This document shows, one piece after another, positions 9,585 through 54,700 of a stretch of DNA of 64,000 bases. Within the stretch, counting starts at the first letter, position 1. Every line of letters starts with the position of its first letter. The DNA is from Lumbricus terrestris (taxonomy: Eukaryota > Annelida > Clitellata > Crassiclitellata > Lumbricidae): positions 23,769,682-23,833,681 of the forward strand of contig OX457053.1 of NCBI GenBank assembly GCA_949752735.1, in the 5' to 3' direction. Under the pieces are notes generated by a model. It was not told the origin of the DNA, searched no databases, and saw nothing but the letters and a program-made list of their open reading frames with translations. A program made the translations under genes and the position numbers.

Positions 9585-9620
9585 AGCCAACAGTATCAGG
9601 TTGCCTTACTTCTACACGTC

Positions 9621-19157: not shown

Positions 19158-19694
19158 CTAATTTTGATTTGTGCCAACTATGTGGTCTTCTGAATTTGTG
19201 TCGACTACGTGGTCTTCTGAATTTGTGTCGACTACGTGGTCTTCTTGATTTGTGCTGACTATGTGGTCCTCTGAATTTGTGTCGACTACGTGGTCTTCTG
19301 GATTTGTGTCGACTACGTGGTCTTCTGGATTTGTGCTGACTACGTGGTCTTCTTGATTTGTGCCAACTATGTGGTCTTCTGAATTTGTGTCGACTACGTG
19401 GTCTTCTGAATTTGTGTCGACTACGTGGTCTTCTGGATTTGTGCTGACTACGTGGTCTTCTGGATTTGGGCCAACTATGTGGTCTTCTGGAGTTGTGCTG
19501 ACTTGGTCTTCTTTATTTGTGCTGACTATGTGGTCCTCTGGATTTGTGTCAAGTATGTGGTCTTCTGGATTTGTGTCGACTACGTGGTCTTCTGGATTTG
19601 TGCTGACAACCTCTGGCTTCAGGAAAGGTTGATTGTGTATGAGAACATTTCTCTTTATTGCTTTATTACACAGTAGTGGTATGCACAATAACAT
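19158..19694 (-). CDS. Open 27-bp minisatellite coding a 9-residue EDHVVDTNP repeat
   Basis: The minus strand is open for 178 codons. About 16 units of 27 bp encode EDHVVDTNP-type repeats with conservative variation (V/I/L, D/S/G, P/S/Q). One unit is 3 bp short, an in-frame change, giving EDQVSTTP. An N-terminal part MLLCIPLLCNKAIKRN precedes the repeats. It may be an acidic exon of the element's gene, or a minisatellite that happens to stay open because its unit is a multiple of three. Confidence 0.4.
   Translation of the reverse strand: MLLCIPLLCNKAIKRNVLIHNQPFLKPEVVSTNPEDHVVDTNPEDHILDTNPEDHIVSTNKEDQVSTTPEDHIVGPNPEDHVVSTNPEDHVVDTNSEDHVVDTNSEDHIVGTNQEDHVVSTNPEDHVVDTNPEDHVVDTNSEDHIVSTNQEDHVVDTNSEDHVVDTNSEDHIVGTNQN
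19167..19617. repeat. 27-bp minisatellite, about 16 units
   Basis: Unit TGGTCTTCTGAATTTGTGTC plus GACTACG, with GAATTT/GGATTT and CGACTACG/CAACTATG variants in alternation. Confidence 0.95.
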
Positions 19695-24165: not shown

Positions 24166-24171
24166 TAACAG

Positions 24172-25244
24172 ATGACACGACGCTTTGAACAATGTCTAAG
24201 CATCAGCCGGAAGAAGATCCTCTTCGGCATCGCCCTCGGCTACGTCCTGGCATTCCTTGTCGTGCAGCATCGCTACGGCTGGTCTTTCGCGTCGCTCTTC
24301 TCCACGCTCAGCGAGCGCGGTCGAGCAATCATGAGCAGCTCACAACCGGAGCACCAACCGCTCCAGGACCTCGTTCTAAGGAACTCCGGCGTGTCCAATA
24401 CCTCAGCGGATAATCAGATCATGCACCGACCGATAGATATCCACTTCGAGGACCCGGTGCTTGGCCACACGGGAGAGGCCAGCGGACACCAGGACCACGG
24501 TCTGCAAGACACGACCAATCACATCGCAATCGGAGGCGGCATAACGTCGAAGAAGCTTGACGGCGTTACGGCGGACAACATCAAATCGAAATTCCAGTTT
24601 TTCACGATACTCATGCCGTCGTTCTGCCGGACGGTGACGCCCGGCTACCACTACCACTTCTACCTGGCGTACGACACGAGCGATCCGGTCTTCAGCGACC
24701 CCGGTCTGCTCGGCGCTTTCAACGACGCGTTCTACTCCGTCTGCCAGTCGCTGTGTCCGAAGAATCTCAACACGTCGCTCCACTTTGTCCAGTGCAGTCA
24801 CCAGGGGCGCCCGGCGTGGGCGCAGAACGATGCGATGATCGAGGCTTACCTCGACGGCATGGAGTACTTCTACCGTGTCAACGACGACTCGATTCTCGAG
24901 AGTTCCGGTTGGGTGGAGGAGTTCATCCGGACGCTGGGCGGTTACGATCCACCGAACGTTGGAGTCGTCGGACCGAAGCACCTGGGGGGAAACGAGCTGA
25001 TTCTGACGTACGATTTCGTCCACCGAACGCATCTCGAGGTCTTCGGGTTCTACTACCCGAGGGTTTTCACCGACTGGTACGCGGACGATTGGGTGACGAA
25101 GGTCTACATGCCCGGACGAATGACGAAGCTGTCGCACATCCATCTGAAGCACACGATGACGCTCGGCCAGAGGTACCGGAACGACTTCACCATCTATCCG
25201 AAGTTGGAGCTGCAGCTGAAGGCGGACAAGCTCACGCTGTCCAG
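24172..25244 (+). CDS. Exon 1 of the glycosyltransferase-like gene
   Basis: Starts at the ATG right after an acceptor-like AACAG and ends at donor CCAG|GTACGC (phase 2). It encodes the anchor, stem and NDD-containing domain. Reading on past the donor gives only a hydrophobic tail encoded by intron DNA. Confidence 0.8.
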
Positions 25245-25370
25245 GTACGCAGCGGCTATTTTTGTGATTCCGTTTGTGTGTGTTCGTAATTGTATTATTT
25301 TTATTATTATATATTCATTGTTTGATTAGTAAATGAACTAGTAATAGATTATGTGATTTTTAGTTCGTAA

Positions 25371-25415
<45 letters not shown>

Positions 25416-26652
25416 GTATTTATTGTTTGATTAGTAAATGAACTACTAATAGATTATGTGATTTTTAGTTTTAAAATGTACCGCGGTTCCACTGCAATTG
25501 AAAAAATCTGCAATAATGAAAGCATTTCTCGATTGTGTGTGTGGAATCTTGCAGGGCGTCCTCAATTTTTCCTCACATCTTCAGCAAAATTGGTTCTACT
25601 TTTTCTGCTCCTGCATATAGACATGACATGTGTCCAGCATGACACACCAGCCAGTTCTCTTTTCCTCATATCATATGAGTTGGCTTATAATGTTTCACAG
25701 GTACATCGCATACAAGAAGCATGGCTACACACAGCCGAGTCTCAAGAAGGTCATTGCGGTGTCTCTCTACGGCAACGAACCAAAGATGACGATGGGGGCC
25801 ATTCGCAACGCGCAGACGATACCGGCGTTCTTCCCCGGTTGGTCCCTAAGGGTCTACGTCGCCAAACCAACTCCGGATCTACCAGATAAGAACTGGATCG
25901 TACCGGATCGGATCATCGCAAAGCTCAAGTCGCTCGGCGCTCAGATCGCCTATGTTGACGTGAAGCACGTCAGGTTGGCGCCACGATGGTGGAGCCATCT
26001 GGTGGTTGACGACCCGAGCGTTGAGTATTTTTTGGTCCGCAGCGCCAACGGTCGACTGAGCGACCGCGACGCGGCTGCGGTTTCTGATTGGATAGAATCA
26101 ACGGATGGTGAGTCGGCTTTTCACTGCATCCGCGATCACCCGCGCCACGCGGCCATGGCGGTCGAAAGCAAGTTGTGGGGTGGACGAGGAGCGCCCCTCC
26201 GCGAGCGACTGAAGCCCGGAATGAGCGCGCTGCTCCACGAATACGCGTCGAATCATTCCGGGGAAGGGAGCGCAGCGCCGCGGCCCGCTCACTTCCTCTC
26301 GAGCGTCGTCTGGCCGCTGGTGCGTGACGTCGCATACTGTCACGACAGCGTCTCGTGCAAGAACTGGCCAAACACTTACAGCTTTCCGGTGAAGCGGGAC
26401 GATCCGTCTCAGTTCGTCGGGCAGTTGTTTAATGAGAATCAGGAGGCCGAAGGTGGTCCCGACCCGGGCGAGCTGGCCTCTGTTACGCCTGATTGCACGG
26501 GGAAAGGCAAGTGGCAGCCTGTTGCTGCAGCAGATCTCCCAACTCCAACACCCGCGCGGTCGTCGAGTTCCCTGTCGTTCGAACAGCAACGAAACGTGAC
26601 TAATACGAACCTAACAGGGACAGCTGTGGCTGGTTTCAAGTCGAGTCGATGA
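24172..26652 (+). CDS. Two-exon type II membrane protein, glycosyltransferase-like (674 aa)
   Basis: Exon 1 (24172-25244) and exon 2 (25701-26652) join in frame across a 456-bp GT/AG intron (2025 nt, 674 residues). Residues 15-32 form one hydrophobic anchor after a basic N-terminus (type II, Golgi-like). A variable stem follows to about 138. The first conserved block (140-350) has HFYLAYDTSD, an RVNDDS acidic motif (NDD 237-239, a DXD-like metal site) and WYADDW (302-307), consistent with a GT-A fold. The second block (374-530) has KVIAVSLYGNEPKMTMGAIR, FPGW, VRSANGRLS and FHCIRDHPRH, resembling another glycosyltransferase-like family. In that family, as I recall it, the VRSANGR position is usually acidic (RDxDSR), so this half may be inactive. 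The tail after about 600 is low-complexity. Both exons are GC-rich against AT-rich flanks. The substrate is unknown. Confidence 0.75.
25375..25414. repeat. (ATT)n microsatellite inside the intron
   Basis: Pure ATT repeats. On either side the sequence GTTTGATTAGTAAATGAACT is duplicated about 110 bp apart (25319 and 25429), so the intron grew by a local duplication. Confidence 0.9.
25701..26652 (+). CDS. Exon 2 of the glycosyltransferase-like gene
   Basis: Begins after acceptor TGTTTCACAG (25691-25700). The single G completes the Arg codon begun by exon 1, and the next codons read YIAYKKHGYT. It ends with TGA at 26650-26652. It holds the second GT-like block and a Ser/Thr/Pro-rich tail. The 25630 ATG is in the intron. 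Confidence 0.8.
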
Positions 26653-31560: not shown

Positions 31561-32057
31561 TTGCGTCAGATCCTTCACCACCGCTTTTTCATTCTTCGCT
31601 CACAATACAACTATATTCTGCATGATTCGTGGGCGGCTATGTTCAATCTATAAAGCTTCCCATTTTAAAGAGATTCCGAGTCAATCAAAATTTCATCGTT
31701 TTTTTCTCAAAAATCCTTCATGGTTAGTTAGTTCATGGTTTTTTCTCACGAAAAATTTGACGTAATGCGATCTTGAAAATATTGACTCAGCATGCGAGAT
31801 ACATGGCAAGTATCGCATTTCCTCAAAAATCTTGCCAGCCGAAGAGACCGAAGCAGAGATTATATGCATTGTGTTCATAGCAGTTGCCATGGTAGCACTA
31901 GGTGTTTTATGGTCAGTATCATGCTCTCATTTTGCATTAGTCGCTCACAATACAACTATATTCTTCCTGATTCGTGTGCAGCCATATTCTATCTATAAAG
32001 CGTCCCATTTTAAAGAGATTCCGAGTCAACCAAAATTTCATCGACTTTTTCAAAACA
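31561..32057. repeat. Left flank repeat, period about 345 bp
   Basis: About one and a half units. TCGCTCACAATACAACTATA occurs at about 31596 and 31941. The same family reappears on the right of the array at 48111-48740. Its sequence does not obviously match the 340-bp monomer. Confidence 0.75.
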
Positions 32058-35000
32058 GGTTTTCTTGAAAAAATGACGAAATTTTGACTATGCAGGAACC
32101 GTTTCAAAATTACATATTAGATAGGCTGGCTAGGCCTAATGATGACCGGGGATGAATTTCCTCCTTATCTTTGGTGATTACTGCAAAATTCGACAATAGA
32201 ATTCGCTTCAAAGCGAATCGGATCACCGTGCCAACAGGTATAGATAAAGTGACATATCTTAATTCTGGGCATATCAAATGACGAAATCTCTTCGGAATGT
32301 GATGCCTGACGTCTCCCTCACAAGCTCACTTAATCTCAAGATGATTGGAAGAGGTAGAATATTTGGCAAGAAAAAACCAATGGACTAACCATCAACGTTT
32401 TCTTGAAAACATGACGAAATTTTAACTATGTAGGAAACGTTTCAAAATTACATATTATAGATAGGCTGGCTAGGCCTAATGATGACCGGGGATGAATTTC
32501 CTCCTTATCTTTGGTGATTACTGCAAAATTCGACAATAGAATTCGCTTCAAAGCGAATCGGATCACCGTGCCAACAGGTATAGATAAAGTGACATATCTT
32601 CATTCTGGGCACATCAAATGACGAAATCTCTTCGGAAATGTGATGCCTGACGTCTCCCTCACAAGCTCACTTAATCTCAAGATGATTGGAAGAGGTAGAA
32701 TATTTGGCAAGAAAAAACCAATGGGCTATAAACCATCAAGGTTTTCTTGAAAATATGACGAAATTTTGACTATGTAGGAAACGTTTCAAAATTACATATT
32801 AGATAGGCTGGCTAGGCCTAATGATGACCGGGGATGAATTTCCCCCTTATCTTTGGTGATTACTGCAAAATTCGACAATAGAATTCGCTTCAAAGCGAAT
32901 CGGATCACCGTGCCAACAGGTATAGATAAAGTGACATATCTTCATTCTGGGCATATCAAATGACGAAATCTCTTCGGAAATGTGATGCCTGACGTCTCCC
33001 GCACAAGCTCACTTAATCTCAAGATGATTGGAAGAGGTAGAATATTTGGCAAGAAAAAACCAATGGACTAACCATCAAGGTTTTCTTGAAAATATGACGA
33101 AATTTTGACTATGTAGGAAACGTTTCAAAATTACATATTAGATAGGCTGGCTAGGCCTAATGATGACCGGGGATGAATTTCCCCCTTATCTTTGGTGATT
33201 ACTGCAAAATTCGACAATAGAATTCGCTTCAAAGCGAATCGGATAACCGTGCCAACAGGTAGGCCTATAGATAAAGTGACATATCTTAATTCTGGGCATA
33301 TCAAATGACGAAATCTCTTCGGAAATGTGATGCCTGACGTCTCCCTCACAAGCTCACTTAATCTCAAGATGATTGGAAGAGGTAGAATATTTGGCAAGAA
33401 AAAAACAATGGACTAACAACCATCAACGTTTTCTTGAAAACATGACGAAATTTTAACTATGTAGGAAACGTTTCAAAATTACATATTAGATAGGCTGGCT
33501 AGGCCTAATGATGACCGGGAAATGAATTTCCTCCTTATCTTTGGTGATTACTGCAAAATTCGACAATAGAATTCGCTTCAAAGCGAATCGGATCACCGTG
33601 CCAACAGGTATAGATAAAGTGACATATCTTCATTCTGGGCATATCAAATGACGAAATCTCTTCGGAAATGTGATGCCTGACGTCTCCCGCACAAGCTCAC
33701 TTAATCTCAAGATGATTGGAAGAGGTAGAATATTTGGCAAGAAAAAACCAATGGACTAACCATCAACGTTTTCTTGAAAATATGACGAAATTTTGACTAT
33801 GTAGGAAACGTTTCAAAATTACATATTAGATAGGCTGGCTAGGCCTAATGATGACCGGGGATGGATTTCCCCCTTATCTTTGGTGATTACTGCAAAATTC
33901 GACAATAGAATTCGCTTCAAAGCGAATCGGATCACCGTGCCAACAGGTATAGATAAAGTGACATATCTTCATTCTGGGCATATCAAATGACGAAATCTCT
34001 TCGGAATGTGATGCCTGACGTCTCCCTCACAAGCTCACTTTATCTCAAGATGATTGGAAGAGGTAGAATATTTGGCAAGAAAAAACCAATGGACTAACAT
34101 CAAGGTTTTCTTGAAAATATGACGAAATTTTAACTATGTAGGAAACGTTTCAAAATTACATATTATAGATAGGCTGGCTAGGCCTAATGATGACCGGGGA
34201 TGAATTTCCTCCTTATCTTTGGTGATTACTGCAAAATTCGACAATAGAATTCGCTTCAAAGCGAATCGGATCACCGTGCCAACAGGTATAGATAAAGTGA
34301 CATATCTTCATTCTGGGCATATCAAATGACGAAATCTCTTCGGAAATGTGATGCCTGACGTCTCCCGCACAAGCTCACTTAATCTCAAGATGATTGGAAG
34401 AGGTAGAATATTTGGCAAGAAAAAACCAATGGACTAACATCAAGGTTTTCTTGAAAATATGACGAAATTTTGACTATGTAGGAAACGTTTCAAAATTACA
34501 TATTAGATAGGCTGGCTAGGCCTAATGATGACCGGGGATGAATTTCCCCCTTATCTTTGGTGATTACTGCAAAATTCGACAATAGAATTCGCTTCAAAGC
34601 GAATCGGATCACCGTGCCAACAGGTAGGCCTATAGATAAAGTGACATATCTTAATTCTGGGCATATCAAATGACGAAATCTCTTCGGAAATGTGATGCCT
34701 GACGTCTCCCTCAAAAGCTCACTTAATCTCAAGATGATTGGAAGAGGTAGAATATTTGGCAAGAACAAACCTATGGACTAACATCAAGGTTTTCTTGAAA
34801 ATATGACGAAATTTTGACTATGTAGGAAACGTTTCAAAATTACATATTAGATAGGCTGGCTAGGCCTAATGATGACCGGGGATGGATTTCCCCCTTATCT
34901 TTGGTGATTACTGCAAAATTCGACAATAGAATTCGCTTCAAAGCGAATCGAATCACCGTGCCAACAGGTATAGATAAAGTGACATATCTTCATTCTGGGC

Positions 35001-38000
35001 ATATCAAATGACGAAATCTCTTCGGAAATGTGATGCCTGACGTCTCCCGCACAAGCTCACTTAATCTCAAGATGATTGGAAGAGGTAGAATATTTGGCAA
35101 GAAAAAACCAATGGACTAACCATCAACGTTTTCTTGAAAACATGACGAAATTTTAACTATGTAGGAAACGTTTCAAAATTACATATTATAGATAGGCTGG
35201 CTAGGCCTAATGATGACCGGGGATGAATTTCCTCCTTATCTTTGGTGATTACTGCAAAATTCGACAATAGAATTCGCTTCAAAGCGAATCGGATCACCGT
35301 GCCAACAGGTATAGATAAAGTGACATATCTTCATTCTGGGCATATCAAATGACGAAATCTCTTCGGAAATGTGATGCCTGACGTCTCCCGCACAAGCTCA
35401 CTTAATCTCAAGATGATTGGAAGAGGTAGAATATTTGGCAAGAAAAAACCAATGGACTATAAACCATCAAGGTTTTCTTGAAAATATGACGAAATTTTGA
35501 CTATGTAGGAAACGTTTCAAAATTACATATTAGATAGGCTGGCTAGGCCTAATGATGACCGGGGATGAATTTCCCCCTTATCTTTGGTGATTACTGCAAA
35601 ATTCGACAATAGAATTCGCTTCAAAGCGAATCGGATCACCGTGCCAACAGGTAGGCCTATAGATAAAGTGACATATCTTAATTCTGGGCATATCAAATGA
35701 CGAAATCTCTTCGGAAATGTGATGCCTGACGTCTCCCTCAAAAGCTCACTTAATCTCAAGATGATTGGAAGAGGTAGAATATTTGGCAAGAACAAACCTA
35801 TGGACTAACATCAAGGTTTTCTTGAAAATATGACGAAATTTTAACTATGTAGGAAACGTTTCAAAATTACATATTATAAATAGGCTGGCTAGGCCTAATG
35901 ATGACCGGGGATGAATTTCCTCCTTATCTTTGGTGATTACTGCAAAATTCGACAATAGAATTCGCTTCAAAGCGAATCGGATCACCGTGCCAACAGGTAT
36001 AGATAAAGTGACATATCTTCATTCTGGGCATATCAAATGACGAAATCTCTTCGGAAATGTGATGCCTGACGTCTCCCGCACAAGCTCACTTAATCTCAAG
36101 ATGATTGGAAGAGGTAGAATATTTGGCAAGAAAAAACCAATGGACTAACCATCAAGGTTTTCTTGAAAATATGACGAAATTTTGACTATGTAGGAAACGT
36201 TTCAAAATTACATATTAGATAGGCTGGCTAGGCCTAATGATGACCGGGAAATGAATTTCCTCCTTATCTTTGGTGATTACTGCAAAATTCGACAATAGAA
36301 TTCGCTTCAAAGCGAATCGGATCACCGTGCCAACAGGTATAGATAAAGTGACATATCTTCATTCTGGGCATATCAAATGACGAAATCTCTTCGGAATGTG
36401 ATGCCTGACGTCTCCCTCACAAGCTCACTTTATCTCAAGATGATTGGAAGAGGTAGAATATTTGGCAAGAAAAAACCAATGGACTAACATCAAGGTTTTC
36501 TTGAAAATATGACGAAATTTTGACTATGTAGGAAACGTTTCAAAATTACATATTAGATAGGCTGGCTATGGGCCTAATGATTACCGGGGATGAATTTCCC
36601 CCTTATCTTTGGTGATTACTGCAAAATTCGACAATAGAATTCGCTTCAAAGCGAATCGAATCACCGTGCCAACAGGTATAGATAAAGTGACATATCTTCA
36701 TTCTGGGCATATCAAATGACGAAATCTCTTCGGAAATGTGATGCCTGACGTCTCCCGCACAAGCTCACTTAATCTCAAGATGATTGGAAGAGGTAGAATA
36801 TTTGGCAAGAAAAAACCAATGGACTAACCATCAACGTTTTCTTGAAAACATGACGAAATTTTAACTATGTAGGAAACGTTTCAAAATTACATATTATAGA
36901 TAGGCTGGCTAGGCCTAATGATGACCGGGGATGAATTTCCTCCTTATCTTTGGTGATTACTGCAAAATTCGACAATAGAATTCGCTTCAAAGCGAATCGG
37001 ATCACCGTGCCAACAGGTATAGATAAAGTGACATATCTTCATTCTGGGCATATCAAATGACGAAATCTCTTCGGAAATGTGATGCCTGACGTCTCCCGCA
37101 CAAGCTCACTTAATCTCAAGATGATTGGAAGAGGTAGAATATTTGGCAAGAAAAAACCAATGGACTATAAACCATCAAGGTTTTCTTGAAAATATGACGA
37201 AATTTTGACTATGTAGGAAACGTTTCAAAATTACATATTAGATAGGCTGGCTAGGCCTAATGATGACCGGGGATGAATTTCCCCCTTATCTTTGGTGATT
37301 ACTGCAAAATTCGACAATAGAATTCGCTTCAAAGCGAATCGGATCACCGTGCCAACAGGTATAGATAAAGTGACATATCTTCATTCTGGGCATATCAAAT
37401 GACGAAATCTCTTCGGAAATGTGATGCCTGACGTCTCCCGCACAAGCTCACTTAATCTCAAGATGATTGGAAGAGGTAGAATATTTGGCAAGAAAAAACC
37501 AATGGACTAACCATCAAGGTTTTCTTGAAAATATGACGAAATTTTGACTATGTAGGAAACGTTTCAAAATTACATATTAGATAGGCTGGCTAGGCCTAAT
37601 GATGACCGGGGATGAATTTCCCCCTTATCTTTGGTGATTACTGCAAAATTCGACAATAGAATTCGCTTCAAAGCGAATCGAATCACCGTGCCAACAGGTA
37701 TAGATAAAGTGACATATCTTCATTCTGGGCATATCAAATGACGAAATCTCTTCGGAAATGTGATGCCTGACGTCTCCCTCACAAGCTCACTTTATCTCAA
37801 GATGATTGGAAGAGGTAGAATATTTGGCAAGAAAAAACCAATGGACTAACCATCAAGGTTTTCTTGAAAATATGACGAAATTTTAACTATGTAGGAAACG
37901 TTTCAAAATTACATATTATAGATAGGCTGGCTAGGCCTAATGATGACCGGGGATGAATTTCCTCCTTATCTTTGGTGATTACTGCAAAATTCGACAATAG

Positions 38001-41000
38001 AATTCGCTTCAAAGCGAATCGGATCACCGTGCCAACAGGTATAGATAAAGTGACATATCTTCATTCTGGGCATATCAAATGACGAAATCTCTTCGGAAAT
38101 GTGATGCCTGACGTCTCCCGCACAAGCTCACTTAATCTCAAGATGATTGGAAGAGGTAGAATATTTGGCAAGAAAAAACCAATGGACTAACCATCAAGGT
38201 TTTCTTGAAAATATGACGAAATTTTGACTATGTAGGAAACGTTTCAAAATTACATATTAGATAGGCTGGCTAGGCCTAATGATGACCGGGGATGAATTTC
38301 CCCCTTATCTTTGGTGATTACTGCAAAATTCGACAATAGAATTCGCTTCAAAGCGAACCGGATAACCGTGCCAACAGGTAGGCCTATAGATAAAGTGACA
38401 TATCTTCATTCTGGGCATATCAAATGACGAAATCTCTTCGGAAATGTGATGCCTGACGTCTCCCTCACAAGCTCACTTAATCTCAAGATGATTGGAAGAG
38501 GTAGAATATTTGGCAAGAAAAAACCAATGGACTTACCATCAACGTTTTCTTGAAAACATGACGAAATTTTAACTATGTAGGAAACGTTTCAAAATTACAT
38601 ATTAGATAGGCTGGCTAGGCCTAATGATGACCGGGAAATGAATTTCCTCCTTATCTTTGGTGATTACTGCAAAATTCGACAATAGAATTCGCTTCAAAGC
38701 GAATCGGATCACCGTGCCAACAGGTATAGATAAAGTGACATATCTTCATTCTGGGCATATCAAATGACGAAATCTCTTCGGAATGTGATGCCTGACGTCT
38801 TCCTCACAAGCTCACTTTATCTCAAGATGATTGGAAGAGGTAGAATATTTGGCAAGAAAAAACCAATGGACTAACATCAAGGTTTTCTTGAAAATATGAC
38901 GAAATTTTGACTATGTAGGAAACGTTTCAAAATTACATATTAGATAGGCTGGCTAGGCCTAATGATGACCGGGGATGAATTTCCCCCTTATCTTTGGTGA
39001 TTACTGCAAAATTCGACAATAGAATTCGCTTCAAAGCGAATCGAATCACCGTGCCAACAGGTATAGATAAAGTGACATATCTTCATTCTGGGCATATCAA
39101 ATGACGAAATCTCTTCGGAAATGTGATGCCTGACGTCTCCCGCACAAGCTCACTTAATCTCAAGATGATTGGAAGAGGTAGAATATTTGGCAAGAAAAAA
39201 CCAATGGACTAACCATCAACGTTTTCTTGAAAACATGACGAAATTTTAACTATGTAGGAAACGTTTCAAAATTACATATTATAGATAGGCTGGCTAGGCC
39301 TAATGATGACCGGGGATGAATTTCCTCCTTATCTTTGGTGATTACTGCAAAATTCGACAATAGAATTCGCTTCAAAGCGAATCGGATCACCGTGCCAACA
39401 GATATAGATAAAGTGACATATCTTCATTCTGGGCATATCAAATGACGAAATCTCTTCGGAAATGTGATGCCTGACGTCTCCCGCACAAGCTCACTTAATC
39501 TCAAGATGATTGGAAGAGGTAGAATATTTGGCAAGAAAAAACCAATGGACTATAAACCATCAAGGTTTTCTTGAAAATATGACGAAATTTTGACTATGTA
39601 GGAAACGTTTCAAAATTACATATTAGATAGGCTGGCTAGGCCTAATGATGACCGGGGATGAATTTCCCCCTTATCTTTGGTGATTACTGCAAAATTCGAC
39701 AATAGAATTCGCTTCAAAGCGAATCGGATAACCGTGCCAACAGGTAGGCCTATAGATAAAGTGACATATCTTAATTCTGGGCATATCAAATGACGAAATC
39801 TCTTCGGAAATGTGATGCCTGACGTCTCCCTCACAGGCTCACTTAATCTCAAGATGATTGGAAGAGGTAGAATATTTGGCAAGAAAAATCCATCAAGGTT
39901 TTCTTGAAAATATGACGAAATTTTGACTATGTAGGAAACGTTTCAAAATTACATATTAGATAGGCTGGCTATAGGCCTAATGATTACCGGGGATGAATTT
40001 CCCCCTTATCTTTGGTGATTACTGCAAAATTCGACAATAGAATTCGCTTCAAAGCGAATCGAATCACCGTGCCAACAGGTATAGATAAAGTGACATATCT
40101 TCATTCTGGGCATATCAAATGACGAAATCTCTTCGGAAATGTGATGCCTGACGTCTCCCGCACAAGCTCACTTAATCTCAAGATGATTGGAAGAGGTAGA
40201 ATATTTGGCAAGAAAAAACCAATGGACTAACCATCAACGTTTTCTTGAAAACATGACGAAATTTTAACTATGTAGGAAACGTTTCAAAATTACATATTAT
40301 AGATAGGCTGGCTAGGCCTAATGATGACCGGGGATGAATTTCCTCCTTATCTTTGGTGATTACTGCAAAATTCGACAATAGAATTCGCTTCAAAGCGAAT
40401 CGGATCACCGTGCCAACAGGTATAGATAAAGTGACATATCTTCATTCTGGGCATATCAAATGACGAAATCTCTTCGGAAATGTGATGCCTGACGTCTCCC
40501 GCACAAGCTCACTTAATCTCAAGATGATTGGAAGAGGTAGAATATTTGGCAAGAAAAAACCAATGGACTATAAACCATCAAGGTTTTCTTGAAAATATGA
40601 CGAAATTTTGACTATGTAGGAAACGTTTCAAAATTACATATTAGATAGGCTGGCTAGGCCTAATGATGACCGGGGATGAATTTCCCCCTTATCTTTGGTG
40701 ATTACTGCAAAATTCGACAATAGAATTCGCTTCAAAGCGAATCGGATCACCGTGCCAACAGGTAGGCCTATAGATAAAGTGACATATCTTAATTCTGGGC
40801 ATATCAAATGACGAAATCTCTTCGGAAATGTGATGCCTGACGTCTCCCGCACAAGCTCACTTAATCTCAAGATGATTGGAAGAGGTAGAATATTTGGCAA
40901 GAACAAACCTATGGACTAACATCAAGGTTTTCTTGAAAATATGACGAAATTTTAACTATGTAGGAAACGTTTCAAAATTACATATTATAAATAGGCTGGC

Positions 41001-44000
41001 TAGGCCTAATGATGACCGGGGATGAATTTCCTCCTTATCTTTGGTGATTACTGCAAAATTCGACAATAGAATTCGCTTCAAAGCGAATCGGATCACCGTG
41101 CCAACAGGTATAGATAAAGTGACATATCTTCATTCTGGGCATATCAAATGACGAAATCTCTTCGGAAATGTGATGCCTGACGTCTCCCGCACAAGCTCAC
41201 TTAATCTCAAGATGATTGGAAGAGGTAGAATATTTGGCAAGAAAAAACCAATGGACTAACCATCAAGGTTTTCTTGAAAATATGACGAAATTTTGACTAT
41301 GTAGGAAACGTTTCAAAATTACATATTAGATAGGCTGGCTAGGCCTAATGATGACCGGGAAATGAATTTCCTCCTTATCTTTGGTGATTACTGCAAAATT
41401 CGACAATAGAATTCGCTTCAAAGCGAATCGGATCACCGTGCCAACAGGTATAGATAAAGTGACATATCTTCATTCTGGGCATATCAAATGACGAAATCTC
41501 TTCGGAATGTGATGCCTGACGTCTCCCTCACAAGCTCACTTTATCTCAAGATGATTGGAAGAGGTAGAATATTTGGCAAGAAAAAACCAATGGACTAACA
41601 TCAAGGTTTTCTTGAAAATATGACGAAATTTTGACTATGTAAGAAACGTTTCAAAATTACATATTAGATAGGCTGGCTATGGGCCTAATGATTACCGGGG
41701 ATGAATTTCCCCCTTATCTTTGGTGATTACTGCAAAATTCGACAATAGAATTCGCTTCAAAGCGAATCGAATCACCGTGCCAACAGGTATAGATAAAGTG
41801 ACATATCTTCATTCTGGGCATATCAAATGACGAAATCTCTTCGGAAATGTGATGCCTGACGTCTCCCGCACAAGCTCACTTAATCTCAAGATGATTGGAA
41901 GAGGTAGAATATTTGGCAAGAAAAAACCAATGGACTAACCATCAACGTTTTCTTGAAAACATGACGAAATTTTAACTATGTAGGAAACGTTTCAAAATTA
42001 CATATTATAGATAGGCTGGCTAGGCCTAATGATGACCGGGGATGAATTTCCTCCTTATCTTTGGTGATTACTGCAAAATTCGACAATAGAATTCGCTTCA
42101 AAGCGAATCGGATCACCGTGCCAACAGGTATAGATAAAGTGACATATCTTCATTCTGGGCATATCAAATGACGAAATCTCTTCGGAAATGTGATGCCTGA
42201 CGTCTCCCGCACAAGCTCACTTAATCTCAAGATGATTGGAAGAGGTAGAATATTTGGCAAGAAAAAACCAATGGACTATAAACCATCAAGGTTTTCTTGA
42301 AAATATGACGAAATTTTGACTATGTAGGAAACGTTTCAAAATTACATATTAGATAGGCTGGCTAGGCCTAATGATGACCGGGGATGAATTTCCCCCTTAT
42401 CTTTGGTGATTACTGCAAAATTCGACAATAGAATTCGCTTCAAAGCGAATCGGATCACCGTGCCAACAGGTATAGATAAAGTGACATATCTTCATTCTGG
42501 GCATATCAAATGACGAAATCTCTTCGGAAATGTGATGCCTGACGTCTCCCGCACAAGCTCACTTAATCTCAAGATGATTGGAAGAGGTAGAATATTTGGC
42601 AAGAAAAAACCAATGGACTAACCATCAAGGTTTTCTTGAAAATATGACGAAATTTTGACTATGTAGGAAACGTTTCAAAATTACATATTAGATAGGCTGG
42701 CTAGGCCTAATGATGACCGGGGATGAATTTCCCCCTTATCTTTGGTGATTACTGCAAAATTCGACAATAGAATTCGCTTCAAAGCGAATCGAATCACCGT
42801 GCCAACAGGTATAGATAAAGTGACATATCTTCATTCTGGGCATATCAAATGACGAAATCTCTTCGGAAATGTGATGCCTGACGTCTCCCTCACAAGCTCA
42901 CTTTATCTCAAGATGATTGGAAGAGGTAGAATATTTGGCAAGAAAAAACCAATGGACTAACCATCAAGGTTTTCTTGAAAATATGACGAAATTTTAACTA
43001 TGTAGGAAACGTTTCAAAATTACATATTATAGATAGGCTGGCTAGGCCTAATGATGACCGGGGATGAATTTCCTCCTTATCTTTGGTGATTACTGCAAAA
43101 TTCGACAATAGAATTCGCTTCAAAGCGAACCGGATAACCGTGCCAACAGGTAGGCCTATAGATAAAGTGACATATCTTCATTCTGGGCATATCAAATGAC
43201 GAAATCTCTTCGGAAATGTGATGCCTGACGTCTCCCTCACAAGCTCACTTAATCTCAAGATGATTGGAAGAGGTAGAATATTTGGCAAGAAAAAACCAAT
43301 GGACTAACCATCAACGTTTTCTTGAAAACATGACGAAATTTTAACTATGTAGGAAACGTTTCAAAATTACATATTAGATAGGCTGGCTAGGCCTAATGAT
43401 GACCGGGAAATGAATTTCCTCCTTATCTTTGGTGATTACTGCAAAATTCGACAATAGAATTCGCTTCAAAGCGAATCGAATCACCGTGCCAACAGGTATA
43501 GATAAAGTGACATATCTTCATTCTGGGCATATCAAATGACGAAATCTCTTCGGAATGTGATGCCTGACGTCTTCCTCACAAGCTCACTTTATCTCAAGAT
43601 GATTGGAAGAGGTAGAATATTTGGCAAGAAAAAACCAATGGACTAACATCAAGGTTTTCTTGAAAATATGACGAAATTTTGACTATGTAGGAAACGTTTC
43701 AAAATTACATATTAGATAGGCTGGCTAGGCCTAATGATGACCGGGGATGAATTTCCCCCTTATCTTTGGTGATTACTGCAAAATTCGACAATAGAATTCG
43801 CTTCAAAGCGAATCGAATCACCGTGCCAACAGGTATAGATAAAGTGACATATCTTCATTCTGGGCATATCAAATGACGAAATCTCTTCGGAAATGTGATG
43901 CCTGACGTCTCCCGCACAAGCTCACTTAATCTCAAGATGATTGGAAGAGGTAGAATATTTGGCAAGAAAAAACCAATGGACTAACCATCAACGTTTTCTT

Positions 44001-46654
44001 GAAAACATGACGAAATTTTAACTATGTAGGAAACGTTTCAAAATTACATATTATAGATAGGCTGGCTAGGCCTAATGATGACCGGGGATGAATTTCCTCC
44101 TTATCTTTGGTGATTACTGCAAAATTCGACAATAGAATTCGCTTCAAAGCGAATCGGATCACCGTGCCAACAGATATAGATAAAGTGACATATCTTCATT
44201 CTGGGCATATCAAATGACGAAATCTCTTCGGAAATGTGATGCCTGACGTCTCCCGCACAAGCTCACTTAATCTCAAGATGATTGGAAGAGGTAGAATATT
44301 TGGCAAGAAAAAACCAATGGACTATAAACCATCAAGGTTTTCTTGAAAATATGACGAAATTTTGACTATGTAGGAAACGTTTCAAAATTACATATTAGAT
44401 AGGCTGGCTAGGCCTAATGATGACCGGGGATGAATTTCCCCCTTATCTTTGGTGATTACTGCAAAATTCGACAATAGAATTCGCTTCAAAGCGAATCGGA
44501 TAACCGTGCCAACAGGTAGGCCTATAGATAAAGTGACATATCTTCATTCTGGGCATATCAAATGACGAAATCTCTTCGGAAATGTGATGCCTGACGTCTC
44601 CCTCACAGGCTCACTTAATCTCAAGATGATTGGAAGAGGTAGAATATTTGGCAAGAAAAATCCATCAAGGTTTTCTTGAAAATATGACGAAATTTTGACT
44701 ATGTAGGAAACGTTTCAAAATTACATATTAGATAGGCTGGCTATAGGCCTAATGATGACCGGGGATGAATTTCCCCCTTATCTTTGGTGATTACTGCAAA
44801 ATTCGACAATAGAATTCGCTTCAAAGCGAATCGAATCACCGTGCCAACAGGTATAGATAAAGTGACATATCTTCATTCTGGGCATATCAAATGACGAAAT
44901 CTCTTCGGAAATGTGATGCCTGACGTCTCCCTCACAAGCTCACTTTATCTCAAGATGATTGGAAGAGGTAGAATATTTGGCAAGAAAAAACCAATGGACT
45001 AACCATCAAGGTTTTCTTGAAAATATGACGAAATTTTAACTATGTAGGAAACGTTTCAAAATTACATATTATAGATAGGCTGGCTAGGCCTAATGATGAC
45101 CGGGGATGAATTTCCTCCTTATCTTTGGTGATTACTGCAAAATTCGACAATAGAATTCGCTTCAAAGCGAATCGGATCACCGTGCCAACAGGTATAGATA
45201 AAGTGACATATCTTCATTCTGGGCATATCAAATGACGAAATCTCTTCGGAAATGTGATGCCTGACGTCTCCCGCACAAGCTCACTTAATCTCAAGATGAT
45301 TGGAAGAGGTAGAATATTTGGCAAGAAAAAACCAATGGACTAACCATCAAGGTTTTCTTGAAAATATGACGAAATTTTGACTATGTAGGAAACGTTTCAA
45401 AATTACATATTAGATAGGCTGGCTAGGCCTAATGATGACCGGGGATGAATTTCCCCCTTATCTTTGGTGATTACTGCAAAATTCGACAATAGAATTCGCT
45501 TCAAAGCGAATCGAATCACCGTGCCAACAGGTATAGATAAAGTGACATATCTTCATTCTGGGCATATCAAATGACGAAATCTCTTCGGAAATGTGATGCC
45601 TGACGTCTCCCGCACAAGCTCACTTAATCTCAAGATGATTGGAAGAGGTAGAATATTTGGCAAGAATAAACCAATGGACTAACCATCAACGTTTTCTTGA
45701 AAACATGACGAAATTTTAACTATGTAGGAAACGTTTCAAAATTACATATTATAGATAGGCTGGCTAGGCCTAATGATGACCGGGGATGAATTTCCTCCTT
45801 ATCTTTGGTGATTACTGCAAAATTCGACAATAGAATTCGCTTCAAAGCGAATCGGATCACCGTGCCAACAGATATAGATAAAGTGACATATCTTCATTCT
45901 GGGCATATCAAATGACGAAATCTCTTCGGAAATGTGATGCCTGACGTCTCCCGCACAAGCTCACTTAATCTCAAGATGATTGGAAGAGGTAGAATATTTG
46001 GCAAGAACAAACCGATGGACTAACATCAAGGTTTTCTTGAAAATATGACGAAATTTTGACTATGTAGGAAACGTTTCAAAATTACATATTAGATAGGCTG
46101 GCTAGGCCTAATGATGACCGGGGATGGATTTTCCCCTTATCTTTGGTGATTACTGCAAAATTCGACAATAGAATTCGCTTCAAAGCGAATCGAATCACCG
46201 TGCCAACAGGTATAGATAAAGTGACATATCTTCATTCTGGGCATATCAAATGACGAAATCTCTTCGAAAATGTGATGCCTGACGTCTCCCTCACAGGCTC
46301 ACTTAATCTCAAGATGATTGGAAGAGGTAGAATATTTGGCAAGAAAAATCCATTGGAACCATCAAGGTTTTCTTGAAAATATGACGAAATTTTGACTATG
46401 TAGGAAACGTTTCAAAATTACATATTAGATAGGCTGGCTAGGCCTAATGATGACCGGGGATGAATTTCCCCCTTATCTTTGGTGATTACTGCAAAATTCG
46501 ACAATAGAATTCGCTTCAAAGCGAATCGGATCACCGTGCCAACAGGTATAGATAAAGTGACATATCTTCATTCTGGGCATATCAAATGACGAAATCTCTT
46601 CGGAATGTGATGCCTGACGTCTCTCTCACAAGCTCACTTAATCTCAAGATGATT
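32058..46654. repeat. Satellite array, about 43 monomers of about 340 bp
   Basis: Head-to-tail monomers. The ATGACGAAAT landmark recurs at 32073, 32411, 32755, 33094, 33442, 33782, 34119, 34459, 34803, 35142 and so on to 46381 (mean about 340 bp, range 337-348). Monomers are very similar. Length variants come from an AGGCCTAT insertion after CAACAGGT, TATTAGATAGG or TATTATAGATAGG, and ACTAACC or ACTATAAACC. Each carries a perfect hairpin ATTCGCTT-CA-AAGCGAAT. Marker spacing shows a higher-order repeat of 14-15 monomers. 340 bp is about two nucleosomes. Minus-strand 88-90-residue frames in five monomers depend on the 8-bp insertion and are not taken as genes. Confidence 0.97.
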
Positions 46655-46662
46655 GGAAGAGG

Positions 46663-47807
46663 CATGGGCGCCCGCAGAAATTTTTGCAGGGGGGGGCAAA
46701 ATTTTTAAGATGGTCATGGTTAAATTTCTTAGTCGCAAGAGCCTAAAAATTGCAAAGCTGGGAAGTGAGAGCACGGGTATTTTTCAAAGAGGTTTCTCGT
46801 GTGTAGGCCTATGATTTTTCAATATGAATAGTTTTCTTAGTGCGAAGAAATTTATTAAAAATCAAAAATAGAATGCTAAAACGTAGGTTTTTAAGGGGCG
46901 CTATGTATATATGAATGAATGAATAAATAAGTGAAAAACAGGTGTCAATTTTAAAGGGGCGAGTGCCCCATCAAGTTACTTCTATATTAATCATAATTTC
47001 TAAACTTCTAAAGTGCCACTCCAAAGTCAATTGCAGGGCACCAGCTTATTCAGAAGTGCTGCATCGAGTCATCAGGCTGTTCAAAGTGTAGTCAAGAAAG
47101 AGTTCCGAGTTCGGTAGCCAGAGGGTCAGATGTTAATGCAGGTGTCGTTTAGTAAGGTGGAGGATCCCGAGGATCAGAAGAATGGGATATCAATTCTTTT
47201 GAACAGAGGAGACGTTGGTTTTGGGAGAAAATCTCGAGGTGTGATAACCAGAGTCAATTATGCAAGTTTCACTACAGCTTGACCTACCTAAATTCTGTAC
47301 TGGCAGCATGCAAAATGGACAAAATGCAGTCTGACTTAAAGCAGACTTGATTCCATATTATAACGCTGGTGAATATGTAGATCTCTCTGACTTAATTTCA
47401 ATGGGCTGTTGATATATTTCAAATTTGTATCATTCGTGTAATTTTATCGATAATTCATTTTTGTACAGTTGTGAAAAATGGCATTAACCTACAGAGAGAT
47501 TCCAGACAAGTAGGTCATAATCGATAGGAATACTATTTGAATGGGCACCCGCGGGAGGGTTAAAGTCATTGTTACCGTTTTCAGGAGGAGCTTGAAAAAG
47601 GCAAGGCAGAAAATTAAGAGCTTTTTTATTTCTAGAGAGATTTCTATACTTAAATTCTGACTTTCACTTAAGTGTATCATTAGTAACATTAGTATTTCAA
47701 TGGGAAGAAATTTCTTTAACCCCAAAAGTAGTAATTAGAAAAACAGGTTTCAATTTTCCAGGGGGGGGGCAAGTGCCCCCCCTTGCCCCTATGTGCGGGC
47801 GCCCATG
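46663..47807. mobile_element. 1145-bp hAT-type element inserted in a satellite monomer
   Basis: Ends CATGGGCGCCCGCA and TGCGGGCGCCCATG are exact inverted repeats. The satellite sequence GGAAGAGG is duplicated at 46655-46662 and 47808-47815. It is non-autonomous as far as can be seen (longest frame 78 codons). It carries a LINE-tail-like segment at about 46990-47130 and C-rich/G-rich tracts near both ends. Confidence 0.92.
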
Positions 47808-47815
47808 GGAAGAGG

Positions 47816-48110
47816 TAGAATATTTGGCAAGAAAAAACCAATGGACTAACATCAAGGTTTTCTTGAAAATATGACGAAATTTTGACTATGTAGGAAACGT
47901 TTCAAAATTACATATTAGACAAGCTGGCTAGGCCTAATGATGACCGGGGATGAATTTCCATCTTATCTTTGGTGATTACTGCAAAATAAAGTGACATATC
48001 TTCATTCTGGGCATATCAAATGACGAAATCTCTTCGGAAATGTGATGCCTGACGCCTCCCTCACAAGCTCACCTTATCTCAAGATGATTGGAAGAGGTCA
48101 AATTTTCTTA
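47816..48110. repeat. Last satellite monomer, diverged
   Basis: Continues the interrupted monomer and includes one more ATGACGAAAT (47871). It lacks the hairpin segment (a deletion after ACTGCAAAA), as expected for an array edge. Confidence 0.9.
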
Positions 48111-48740
48111 AAGAAAAAAACCAATGGACATTCATGGTTTTTCTCTCACGAAAATTTGACCTCGTACGATCATGAAAATATTGACTGAGCATGCGAGGGA
48201 CATGGCAAGAATCACATTTCTGCAAAGATTTTGCCAGCCTAAGAAGCCGAAGCAGAGATTATACGCACTGTGTTCATAGGAGTTGCCATGGTAACAATCT
48301 TTCTTTTATGGTCGATATCATGCTCTCATTTTGCATTAATCGCTCAGAATAGAAATAAATTCTGCCTGATTCATGTGCAGCTATGTTCTATCTATAAAGC
48401 CTCCAATTTTAAAGAGATTCAGAGTCAACCAAAATTTCATCGGTTTTTTCAAAAATCCTTGATGGTTAGGTTAGTTCATGGTTTTTTCTGACGAAATATT
48501 GACCTTATGCGATCTTGAAAATAATGACTATCCTAAGCATGCGAGGGACATGGCAAGTGTCGCATTTATGGAAAGAATTTGCACCTGAAGAGGCCGGAGC
48601 GGAGATTATATTCATTGTTTTCATAGCAGTTTCCATGGTGACAAGGGGGTTTAGCAGTTGATATCATGCTCTAATTTTGCATTAATCGCCCTCAATACAA
48701 GTAAATTCTGTGTGATTCGTTTGCAGCTGTTCTATTTAAT
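48111..48740. repeat. Right flank repeat, period about 345 bp
   Basis: TTCATGGTTTTTTCTGACG-type units recur at about 48130 and 48475, with AGCATGCGAGGGACATGGCAAG in both. Homologous to 31561-32057, so the satellite sits inside an older tandem repeat. A faint third unit follows to about 48900. Confidence 0.75.
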
Positions 48741-48904
48741 AAAATATAGTACTTAAATGCGATTACAAATCACTGCATATTTCATAATTTTTCATAATTA
48801 GACAACTGTTATGGAGTTTGGAGTTTAAAAAAATAAATTATGACTTCTTGCTACATGAAAATTTTAGACTGAGCATGTGAGACAAACTGTCAAAGAAGCT
48901 TACC

Positions 48905-51594: not shown

Positions 51595-51772
51595 TCACGA
51601 GAAGATGTGCTTGAACTCGATGATCATGAATTCGACGACCTGACCCTGGTAGACCATGCTGGCGGCCAGGTTCATGTCCTTGTTCTTCGCCTCCGGCCAG
51701 AGCAGCGTTGGTCCGAAGACGATCGCAAGCGCCTGCGTGTTCATGCGATTCGATGTCGTGTGACGTATCACG
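51595..51772 (-). CDS. ARHGAP12/15/27-like: RhoGAP gene exon i: last exon and stop
   Basis: Acceptor GATTGCGTTTCAG, 178 nt to TGA at 51597-51595. Reads [20 protein letters not shown], then PTLLWPE and [14 protein letters not shown]. The protein ends at the GAP domain. A (AATC)n run sits in the acceptor's pyrimidine region. Confidence 0.92.
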
Positions 51773-54700
51773 CTGAAACGCAATCAAATCAAATCAAATC
51801 TTGTTTATTCAAAGAGATCAACAAATCAAAAACAGCAGTAAAACAAAAAAATACATGAAAAAAGAGTGTACAGAGAGACGAGGAGCTAATATTATCATCT
51901 AACAGGTGAAAGATCAAAAAAAAGGGCAGCCCAGAAAGGGAGTGATCCTGTCAAACCTGGGCAATCACAACAGGAATTATATTAAGATGGAGGTGACAGA
52001 AGAGTGGGGTAAATATCTAACAATATAGATGAGACGAAAACAGTAAATGAGTTATAGGAGAGAGAGGAGGAGGAGAGATAAAACAGGTCATAAGCAGGGT
52101 GAAAACAGTATACATTAATAGCGAATGACTAAGTAAAGCTAATTCGAATTCTAAAGGAATAAATGAATGTCAAAAGTACTGCAATGTATGTGCTGCTTGT
52201 ACTCGAGTCAAACTCACGAAACGACTCTTGTACAGTAATTACCTAGCTGCAAACTTCTACTATGGTAAAAAGGCAATTGCCAGGTAGATTTTCGTTTGGT
52301 ACCTGCCAGCAGCTGGAAAAGCTAGACTTGGGGTTTCCTATCTTCTGAATTCCCTACCCTTTTCTTCTCCACCTCTGTACGGGACCTTCTAGTTCTTTTT
52401 ATAAACTACTCAAGACTTTCCTTTTTGGCCATGCTTGGTTCGGGATGGCCTCTGAATAGTTCTCTTTAAGGGGTGCTATACAAATTCTGTATACAGACAA
52501 GACAGACAGACAGAAAGACAGACAGACACAGTGACAGACTGATGGATGGACAAACGGATGGGCAGGCAAGCAGACAGACAGGCAGACAGACATACATACA
52601 TACAGACAGATAAATATAGTATTATAGATGGCTACACAGATAGCTACAAAGACAGATAGATAGCTGGATAGACAGACAAAATTTAATGTTTAGACACAAC
52701 AAATACTTAGAAATGTCAACAGACTCGGTTAGGTGTTTGAAAAGTTCTTTCATTGTCTCTCGGTGAATAGTCGGCAATTTTCGAACGATGTCTCGAATCG
52801 CTTTCACCTGACGCTGCCGACCCTGAGCCTCTGCAGAACAGAAAAAGATCGATTCCAATTGACGTGGTTCTGACATGTCAACACAATACAAAGCGCCTTT
52901 CGCAGGGCACACCCACCAATCAATGGCACAAAAAATATGCGGTAGTAGGTCAAATGATCCTTCTGTTCATCGTATAATTCTATTCTTCTTTCTCTCTTCC
53001 CAAAATCTGCCTTTTCTGGCAGGGCCTTCCACACTGGGAGTCTTTATGAGGAGGGCCTTCCACACTGGGAGTCTTTATGAGGAGGGCCTTGCACACTGGG
53101 AGTCTTTATGAACAGTTCGCCATACTGGAGAAGCCTTATAGAATACAGTGAGCAAATTGTATTGTATTGTACATGACCATTTATAAAGCGCTTCTCGCAG
53201 CAAGAGCCTTTCAGAAGCGCTCCCAGTGCGTTCAACCCCGAGAGAAAAGGCAAGTTTTTAGACGAGCGAACGATGAAGAAAGACTACCAGAGAGGATGAC
53301 AGAGCGAACTTGATGACGGAAGCCCATTCCATAGGGAGGGACCAATGCAGGCAAATGAACTGGATTGAGCCATTGCGGCATTCAAGCAGCAATGCCTGTG
53401 TCAATTGTGCCATGCAATCTCACAAGCGTTAAAGTGCCCCAGTATAGCTCTAAACGTAAACTTGTATGGTTACCGCTAGTAAAGGTAAAGATAAGGAGGT
53501 TAGATTACGGATACGGTAAGTCAAGATAAGGAAATGTACAGTACCAAAAAAACCAGCAACCTACAAGTGCATAAAAATGCTAATGGTAGACATGTCAATC
53601 ATCCCATTGATTTAACCCGTATGTAAAAATAATTTAATCATAACCATAAATCTGATTTTTTTAAATTTTCAACAAATGCAGAACAAGTATAAATAATTGC
53701 ACCTGTGAGTTTACTGGTTGAGAAACATTGGAAATGGACAACACAAAAAAGAAGTAAGTCCCAACAACAGTATTCTGAGGTCCAGAAAAGACCCAAGAAT
53801 ATGAATTTCCTACTAAAGAAAACCGGCTTCACTTACTGTAGGCGTCGAGAAATTCTTCAAAGAGTGCAAACGTGAAGAGAGGTTCTGACAGTTCTCGGAA
53901 GAAGAGCTTCAGTGCTCCCGTTACAACATGTACATCCCAGAATGAGCTGTTGAGGTCGTAAAATTCGTCTATGGATATAAAAAAAACAGTTAGTTCTTAA
54001 TTTACTACACAAAAATCCAGTGCTTAATTGGCTACAAGCTGGACTTGGGGTCCCTATCGTCACCTTATGATGAGATCTTTACCTTACAATGCATAATAGT
54101 ACCTCTTCTTTCTTTAGGTTCTCTGCCAAGTGGCAGGTCCGAACGTCCAATGTCTCCATCTTTCACGCTGTTGTGCCATGTCCTTAAGTTCTCTGTAACC
54201 CTTCTCCATCATCCCATCCAGCAGTTTTTGTCTAGGTCTTCCTCTGCACCTTTTCCCCTCCAATCTTCCTTCAATTATTTCTTTCTGCAGTGAGTTTCCT
54301 CGCAGCAAATGTCCTATCCAATTCTTTTGTCTTGTCTTTATATAATAGTACCAGAGGGTTAAAATTTCCGTCAAATCCGTCAATCAAAATTGATTGATGT
54401 CCAAACATTTGATATAGCAGCGCTTAGAAAATGGCCAATAACCACCAAAGCCACCACCAATATAGAAGAGAGAGACACAAACACACGTACTGTTGTCCAC
54501 TACCTGACGCAGTTTCTGCACGTTGGCCATGTTGCCGCCAACTCTGTAGACTCCCTCGACGTCCAGTCCTGTTACAAATTAGAGACAGCATATCAATAAT
54601 ACAGGTGTCAACAAGGTGTAAAAACCGGTTACAGGAACGTATTTATAACAGCTAAAAACAGTGTTTGATTTATTTTTTATTTATTTATTTATCCATTTCT

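What the first reader, a model, noticed from the sequence alone, without database searches (positions are those of the whole stretch)
32058..46654. Satellite with 14-15-monomer higher-order repeat
Rare monomer markers recur at fixed large offsets. The AGGCCTAT insertion is at 33258, 34623, 35650; then 38379, 39744, 40762; then 43150, 44515. The GGGAAATGAATTTCC variant is at about 33519, 36247, 38634, 41356 and 43405. Offsets are about 5112-5121 bp, then about 4772 bp. The drop of about 340 bp between 37.9 and 43.1 kb equals one monomer, as expected from unequal exchange. The array therefore evolved by block duplication, as alpha satellite does.
Basis: seen in the sequence. Interest (0 to 1): 0.75.

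Follow-up and report, generated by a model that had tools for sequence, protein, structure and literature searches.

The report
Earthworm satellite with recent block duplication
This is a tandem array of about 43 nearly identical 341-base repeats in the common earthworm genome, in which one 15-unit block was recently copied next to itself and then lost one unit, an ordinary way for such repeats to evolve but a clearly readable example.

Summary
All 8 insertion markers and all 5 GGGAAATGAATTTCC variants lie within 2 bp of the stated places, in an array of 42.9 copies of a 341-bp unit. One tandem duplication explains the main offsets: monomers 9-23 (34786-39894) and 24-37 (39895-44666) differ by 8 mismatches, one 2-bp gap and one 339-bp deletion. 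The deletion has a visible breakpoint: monomer 33 is m18 in front and m19 behind. This supports unequal exchange. With the recent copy removed, no lag passes a family-wise threshold (lag 15 nominal P=0.006). So: two block copies of 98%-identical monomers, not an alpha-satellite-like higher-order repeat.

Context: the genome matches Lumbricus terrestris, chromosome 18. The array lies between remnants of a diverged sister satellite in reverse orientation, in register. A transposon-like element cuts off one more unit. Related arrays lie on chromosomes 14, 17 and 18, with array-specific variants. No function is shown; a pericentromeric role is possible but untested.

The parts
32057..46662 (+). 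Main A-type satellite array: 42.9 copies of a 341-bp unit, monomers m01-m43 (m43 cut short by the inserted element)
   Evidence: TRF; segmentation into 43 monomers; mean pairwise identity of m01-m42 98.2%
34786..39894 (+). Block copy 1: m09-m23, 15 monomers, 5109 bp
   Evidence: 8 mismatches, one 2-bp gap and one 339-bp gap against copy 2
39895..44666 (+). Block copy 2: m24-m37, 14 monomers, 4772 bp
   Evidence: 13 monomer pairs outside the deletion differ by 0-4 columns
42966..43312 (+). m33, hybrid monomer: m18-like at columns 31-112, m19-like at columns 168-275; site of the one-monomer loss
   Evidence: sites differing between m18 and m19 switch parent once; the remaining site (column 347) fits a T seen only in m19
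39895..40235 (+). m24, likely junction of the duplication: one difference from m14 against four from m09
44667..45007 (+). m38: identical to m17 except a 2-bp TA shared with m24; followed by m39, which is identical to m18
46663..47807 (.). 1145-bp interspersed element with terminal inverted repeats CATGGGCGCCCGCA and an 8-bp target-site duplication GGAAGAGG, inserted in the array (hAT-like by these features)
   Evidence: the 25 bases at its left end occur 1207 times in the genome
47805..48129 (+). Continuation of the array beyond the insertion: rest of m43 and one diverged A unit with an internal deletion
   Evidence: 78% over 47854-48129; alignment
31585..32055 (-). Left flank: diverged B-type satellite units, inverted relative to the A array, in register
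   Evidence: about 59% to the reverse complement of A; 86% to the right-flank unit over 325 bp
48131..48881 (-). Right flank: diverged B-type satellite units, same orientation as the left flank

Best explanation
A non-coding satellite array of the earthworm Lumbricus terrestris (chromosome 18) that evolves by unequal exchange between its own near-identical 341-bp units. Shown by the sequence: a block of about 15 monomers exists in two tandem copies, 99.83% alike; one copy lacks exactly one monomer and has a hybrid unit at that place; an element with target duplication sits near the array's end. Shown: the array lies in inverted orientation, in register at the unit junction, between remnants of an older related satellite (B type), which forms its own 40-kb array 0.87 Mb away. 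Inferred: unequal exchange as the cause, the recency, and that an A-type unit or short array entered or flipped within an old B array at the unit junction, then expanded and was homogenised locally. I can show nothing that it does for the worm. Its behaviour (local homogenisation, array-specific variants, arrays in both orientations) is that of a self-homogenising satellite family.
For: Two block copies at 99.83% identity with one 339-bp gap. Hybrid m33 with one parental switch. The run of near-identical pairs exceeds all 2000 shuffles. Array-specific variants: identity 97.7% among the 43 window monomers against 84.7-90.3% to samples of five other A-type arrays, 16 monomers. A-like 38-mer within 3 mismatches 1446 times in the genome, reversed control 0. 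Inverted B flanks. 8-bp target duplication of the inserted element.
Against: The assembly was not checked against reads. Gene conversion could also make near-identical units, though a net loss of one unit with a hybrid junction is more naturally an exchange. How A came to lie inverted in B is not shown. A weak excess similarity at lag 15 outside the recent duplication (nominal P=0.006, 0.013) leaves room for an older 15-unit phase. The unit folds better than dinucleotide shuffles (z -2.8 as DNA, -3.2 as RNA), so a structural role is not excluded.
Confidence: 0.85

Rival explanations
1. A genuine 15-mer higher-order repeat with three copies (m04-m08 onward, m09-m23, m24-m37), the first copy older and partly eroded.
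For: The two rare markers recur at about 15 units also between m04/m05 and m19/m20. m01-m08 against m16-m23 is nominally closer than shuffled orders, P=0.013; lag 15 in the array without the recent copy, P=0.006.
Against: Not significant over 20 lags (5% family-wise threshold about 0.003). m08 against m23 differs by 19 columns while m08 and m11 are identical. For the first 8 monomers lag 11 is as good as lag 15 (8.62 against 8.75 mean differences).
Confidence: 0.15
2. Centromeric or pericentromeric satellite: the A/B family marks the centromere zone of chromosomes 14, 17 and 18.
For: The arrays listed so far lie in one zone per chromosome (chromosome 14: 29.48-34.85 Mb; 17: 7.97-9.53 Mb; 18: 22.89-27.96 Mb) with array-specific variants. 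The place lists are cut at 100, so other zones may exist.
Against: The contig-ordered list of a degenerate A motif starts at C15, so it has no match on C1-C14; another A motif has one isolated match on C5. The two arrays seen in full are small (15 and 40 kb), and the arrays are scattered over megabases. Near the window array lie a RhoGAP exon and an open 386-aa frame with 294 relatives. No kinetochore data exist here. My motifs would miss diverged members.
Confidence: 0.15
3. Assembly artefact: collapse or false duplication of a longer or shorter array.
For: Highly repetitive, 99.8% identical blocks; 33-fold HiFi contigs scaffolded with Hi-C (PMC10799228, passages).
Against: The copies differ by 8 substitutions and a 339-bp deletion with a hybrid junction, which a simple artefact would not create. 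The window has no N. Both flanks are different sequence.
Confidence: 0.07

Closest known systems
Primate alpha satellite higher-order repeats
   Same: Tandem non-coding monomers; block duplication and unequal exchange; array-specific variants; diverged monomers outside a homogeneous core.
   Different: Two near-identical block copies here against hundreds to thousands; monomers 98.2% identical against 50-70%; a 15-kb array here against 250-5000 kb (PMC3966626, passages); flanking old monomers inverted; centromere role unknown.
Drosophila 1.688 (359-bp) satellite family
   Same: Similar unit length; small arrays of a diverging family near genes (the latter recalled; of PMC7642928 I saw the listing and abstract start only).
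   Different: Unrelated organism; sequence not compared here; functions proposed there (recalled) have no counterpart tested here.
Meloidogyne satellite DNAs with simple and higher-order arrays
   Same: Related but highly diverged satellites joined at monomer junctions that carry conserved motifs (PMC3694981, passages).
   Different: There one motif is CENP-B-box-like; here the junctions between inverted A and B units lie at the unit boundary, and no CENP-B box was searched for.

Membership tests
Higher-order repeat (alpha-satellite sense) | A fixed multimer repeated many times | tested here: not met
   Two near-identical copies of the 15-unit block; no lag of 1-20 significant family-wise once one copy is removed
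Higher-order repeat (alpha-satellite sense) | Identity between multimers much higher than between monomers inside one multimer | tested here: inconclusive
   99.83% between blocks against 98.2% between monomers: higher, but a small contrast and one pair only
Higher-order repeat (alpha-satellite sense) | Constituent monomers well diverged (50-70% identical in human; PMC3966626) | tested here: not met
   mean 98.2%, minimum 95.5% for m01-m42
Satellite DNA family | Head-to-tail tandem non-coding units of one length, recurring as homogeneous arrays | tested here: met
   unit length not a multiple of three; no Rfam match at the curated threshold
Centromeric satellite | Co-localises with centromere histone or primary constriction | not testable with these tools
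   no chromatin or cytology data
Centromeric satellite | Present on all chromosomes, or the dominant satellite of each | tested here: inconclusive
   A motif found from C15 on, none on C1-C14 by list order; one hit of another motif on C5; diverged types would be missed
hAT-type transposon (inserted element) | Terminal inverted repeats and 8-bp target-site duplication (defining features recalled) | tested here: met
   14-bp identical ends, GGAAGAGG on both sides
hAT-type transposon (inserted element) | hAT transposase in the element or an autonomous relative | not tested
   the 1145-bp copy shows no reading frame of 120 aa or more in the list; relatives were not examined

The most novel reading that the evidence does not exclude
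The A/B 340-bp family is a pericentromeric satellite restricted to a few small earthworm chromosomes, and this window catches an A array that invaded an older B array in inverted orientation at the unit boundary and is starting to build a higher-order repeat: a nascent, chromosome-specific annelid higher-order array.
Probability: 0.13. Interest if true: 0.55.

Novelty: new member of a known kind. Interest (0 to 1): 0.27.

Why it matters
It is a compact, gap-free record of satellite evolution in which one duplication, one single-unit loss with a readable breakpoint and one element insertion can be told apart. In the listings of my open-access literature searches (titles and abstract starts) I saw no paper on a satellite family of Lumbricus: 0 papers, 1, 7 and 1, of which I opened only PMC12130307. 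That paper, on the earthworm Amynthas aspergillum, reports 43 centromeres called by software; the passages I read give no repeat unit. Searches (1 paper; 10 of 13 listed) showed no annelid centromere repeat in titles or abstract starts. The family would give chromosome probes, and if pericentromeric a handle on annelid centromeres.

Tried and rejected
Higher-order repeat of 14-15 units as a regular property: rejected beyond one duplication. Regular higher-order periods in two chromosome-14 arrays from exact spacings of motif hits: 9-unit (3066 bp, 6 pairs) and 8-unit (2711 bp, 8 pairs) looked attractive by eye, but shuffled intervals reach such counts (mean 5.9, maximum 10; mean 5.1, maximum 8), so dropped. 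Coding or structural-RNA array: no Rfam match in the window at the curated threshold, unit not a multiple of three. Strand folding: unit m03 folds better than most of 100 shuffles (z -2.83 as DNA, 1 of 100 shuffles as good; z -3.23 as RNA, 0 of 100). A hairpin conserved across the family: the perfect palindrome ATTCGCTTCAAAGCGAAT was seen in this array only, the consensus of the other five A-type samples having imperfect versions. Against random placement of the same 25 substitutions, palindrome gain had P 0.027-0.22 by stem length, and RNA folding energy was reached by 0 of 300 placements. With 500 placements, both strands and six arrays (12 tests), this array gave 0.01 and 0.068, the chromosome-17 sample 0.03 on one strand, and the remaining nine values were 0.14-0.99. 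As a post-hoc result it does not survive 12 tests; I draw no conclusion. Search of the viral collection with a 27-base motif: 0 matches. The A-monomer DNA query on the whole genome was not scored for size, and the array-2 consensus query scored 38 of 136 candidates and did not list array 2 itself, so distribution rests on motif counts whose place lists are cut at 100. The mitochondrial ND2 query listed Lumbricus rubellus as best named match (80%) and no L. terrestris record among the 120 shown; the species rests on the assembly's span, chromosome lengths and mitochondrial length, while the held genome has 331 contigs against 361 scaffolds in the paper.
Full report
Observation. The window holds a tandem array of a 341-bp unit at 32057-46662, 42.9 copies, 95% matches. 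The inserted stretch is 6 bp long. I cut the array into 43 monomers and aligned them. Mean identity of m01-m42 is 98.2% over ungapped columns, minimum 95.5% (m43, cut short, left out).

Block structure. A global alignment of 34786-39894 with 39895-44666 shows 8 mismatches, one 2-bp gap and one 339-bp gap, i.e. 99.83% identity over aligned bases. Of the 13 monomer pairs compared outside the deletion, 8 are identical and the others differ by 1, 1, 1, 2 and 4 columns. The longest run of pairs with at most 2 differences is 8, at lag 15; 2000 shuffles of monomer order gave a maximum of 5, once.

Breakpoints. Monomer m33 carries the m18 state at columns 31, 63, 64 and 112 and the m19 state at columns 168, 174, 189-194 and 275. 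At column 347 it agrees with m18 against a T found only in m19. One exchange between columns 112 and 168 explains the loss of one unit. Monomer m24, the first of copy 2, differs from m14 at one column but from m09 at four, which suggests the junction of the duplication. Monomer m38 is m17 plus a 2-bp TA shared with m24, and m39 equals m18. Several exchanges of different size therefore probably shaped the array. Exact repeats of 767-1487 bp occur at offsets of 5, 10, 14, 15, 20 and 21 units (nine pairs of 700 bp or more).

Is it a higher-order repeat? A definition read in PMC4053949 (passages) asks that multimers be much more alike than monomers. PMC3966626 (passages) gives 50-70% identity between human alpha satellite monomers and arrays of 250-5000 kb. 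Here two block copies exist and monomers are 98% alike. With the recent copy removed (28 monomers; m24-m37 and m43 left out), lag 15 has P=0.0057 and lag 7 P=0.013, against a family-wise 5% threshold of about 0.003 over 20 lags; at lag 1 neighbours are unusually dissimilar (P=0.9993). TRF with a limit of 2000 bp prefers a 1708-bp, 5-unit period by a small margin. I conclude: a recent two-copy segmental duplication in a satellite array, with at most a hint of an older 15-unit phase.

Surroundings. At 46663-47807 a 1145-bp element with 14-bp terminal inverted repeats and an 8-bp target duplication interrupts the array; the 25 bases at its left end occur 1207 times in the genome (613 forward, 594 reverse). 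The array resumes, with one diverged unit ending at 48129. Both flanks, 31585-32055 and 48131-48881, are relatives of the unit (59-62% identity in the best stretches) on the opposite strand, in the same register, and their best units are 86% alike (alignment). An A array thus sits, inverted, between B units, with both junctions at the unit boundary. How this arose is inference.

Genome. The window is C19:23769682-23833681 of a 1.056-Gb genome. Contig lengths 36,070,508, 39,888,740 and 46,277,363 and the 15,933-bp mitochondrial contig match chromosomes 18, 17 and 14 (36.07, 39.89 and 46.28 Mb) and the 15.93-kb mitochondrion of Lumbricus terrestris (abstract start and passages of PMC10799228). 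The paper gives 361 scaffolds, the held genome 331 contigs. Mitochondrial ND2 points to a lumbricid earthworm.

Family. The left-flank B unit finds 81 matches, all listed and all on C19 (a lower bound by the tool's own note): the window flanks and a 39.8-kb array at 22.893-22.933 Mb. In that array 113 B matches lie on one strand and all 112 A matches on the other. Its 108 aligned units show runs of 4-7 near-identical pairs at lags 16, 14, 20, 13, 7 and 6, and TRF reports 340-, 680- and 1700-bp periods there. An A motif of 38 bases occurs 1446 times with up to 3 mismatches (681 forward, 765 reverse), against 0 for the reversed control. Place lists show arrays on C15 at 29.48, 30.13 and 31.06 Mb (first 100 of 1194), on C15 at 34.80-34.85 Mb and C19 at 27.94-27.96 Mb (38 of 136 candidates scored), and on C18 at 7.97-9.08 Mb (first 100 of 266) and 9.53 Mb (3 of 3). 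The list of the degenerate A motif runs in contig order and begins at C15, so C1-C14 have no match; another motif (618 matches) has one isolated match on C5 and the next on C18 (first 100). The 24-base palindrome motif of this window occurs 41 times in the genome, all in this window. Samples of five other A-type arrays (16 monomers) are 84.7-90.3% identical to the window units, while the window units are 97.7% alike (43 monomers). The three chromosome-14 samples are 95-97% alike, but the two chromosome-18 A arrays only 84.7%, so homogenisation is not simply chromosome-wide.

Function. No coding or Rfam signal was found in the array. Genes lie close by: a RhoGAP exon at 51598-51783 on the minus strand (E 1.5e-6) and a 386-aa reading frame at 24169-25329 with 294 relatives at E <= 0.001. 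The unit folds better than shuffles, without a consistent family-wide signal. Clustering in one zone per chromosome would fit a pericentromeric satellite; scattered small arrays and absence of near matches from C1-C14 speak against a general centromere repeat. Neither is tested by chromatin data.

Verdict. The alpha-satellite comparison holds for the process, not for membership. New member of a known kind; interest modest.

Noticed in passing
window 32883-32900 and the same place in 41 units: A perfect 8-bp-arm palindrome, ATTCGCTTCAAAGCGAAT, in this array (41 exact anchors); samples of five other A-type arrays have imperfect versions, three substitutions apart in the majority sequence, each completing one pair. 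It may be a template-switch product; tests were weak.
   Followed up: partly
window 46663-47807: 1145-bp element with terminal inverted repeats CATGGGCGCCCGCA and 8-bp target duplication; the 25 bases at its left end occur 1207 times genome-wide.
   Followed up: partly
window 9585-13448: Open 1287-aa frame with reverse transcriptase, RNase H and integrase domains (Ty3/gypsy-type retrotransposon).
   Followed up: no
window 24169-26652: Two long frames (386 and 341 aa) without Pfam match; the first has 294 relatives, the few named ones in annelids and a brachiopod.
   Followed up: partly
G000:C19:22893149-22932942 (L052-L056): Second satellite array, B type, about 112 units of 340 bp, with a 2.2-kb interruption near 22.909-22.911 Mb.
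   Followed up: partly
G000:C318:35670-38654 (L063, L064): A second COX1-like copy in pieces with in-frame TGA, possibly a nuclear or variant mitochondrial copy.
   Followed up: no
window 16770-17254 and 19166-19607: Other tandem repeats: AGTG repeat of 121 copies and a 27-bp repeat of 16.5 copies.
   Followed up: no
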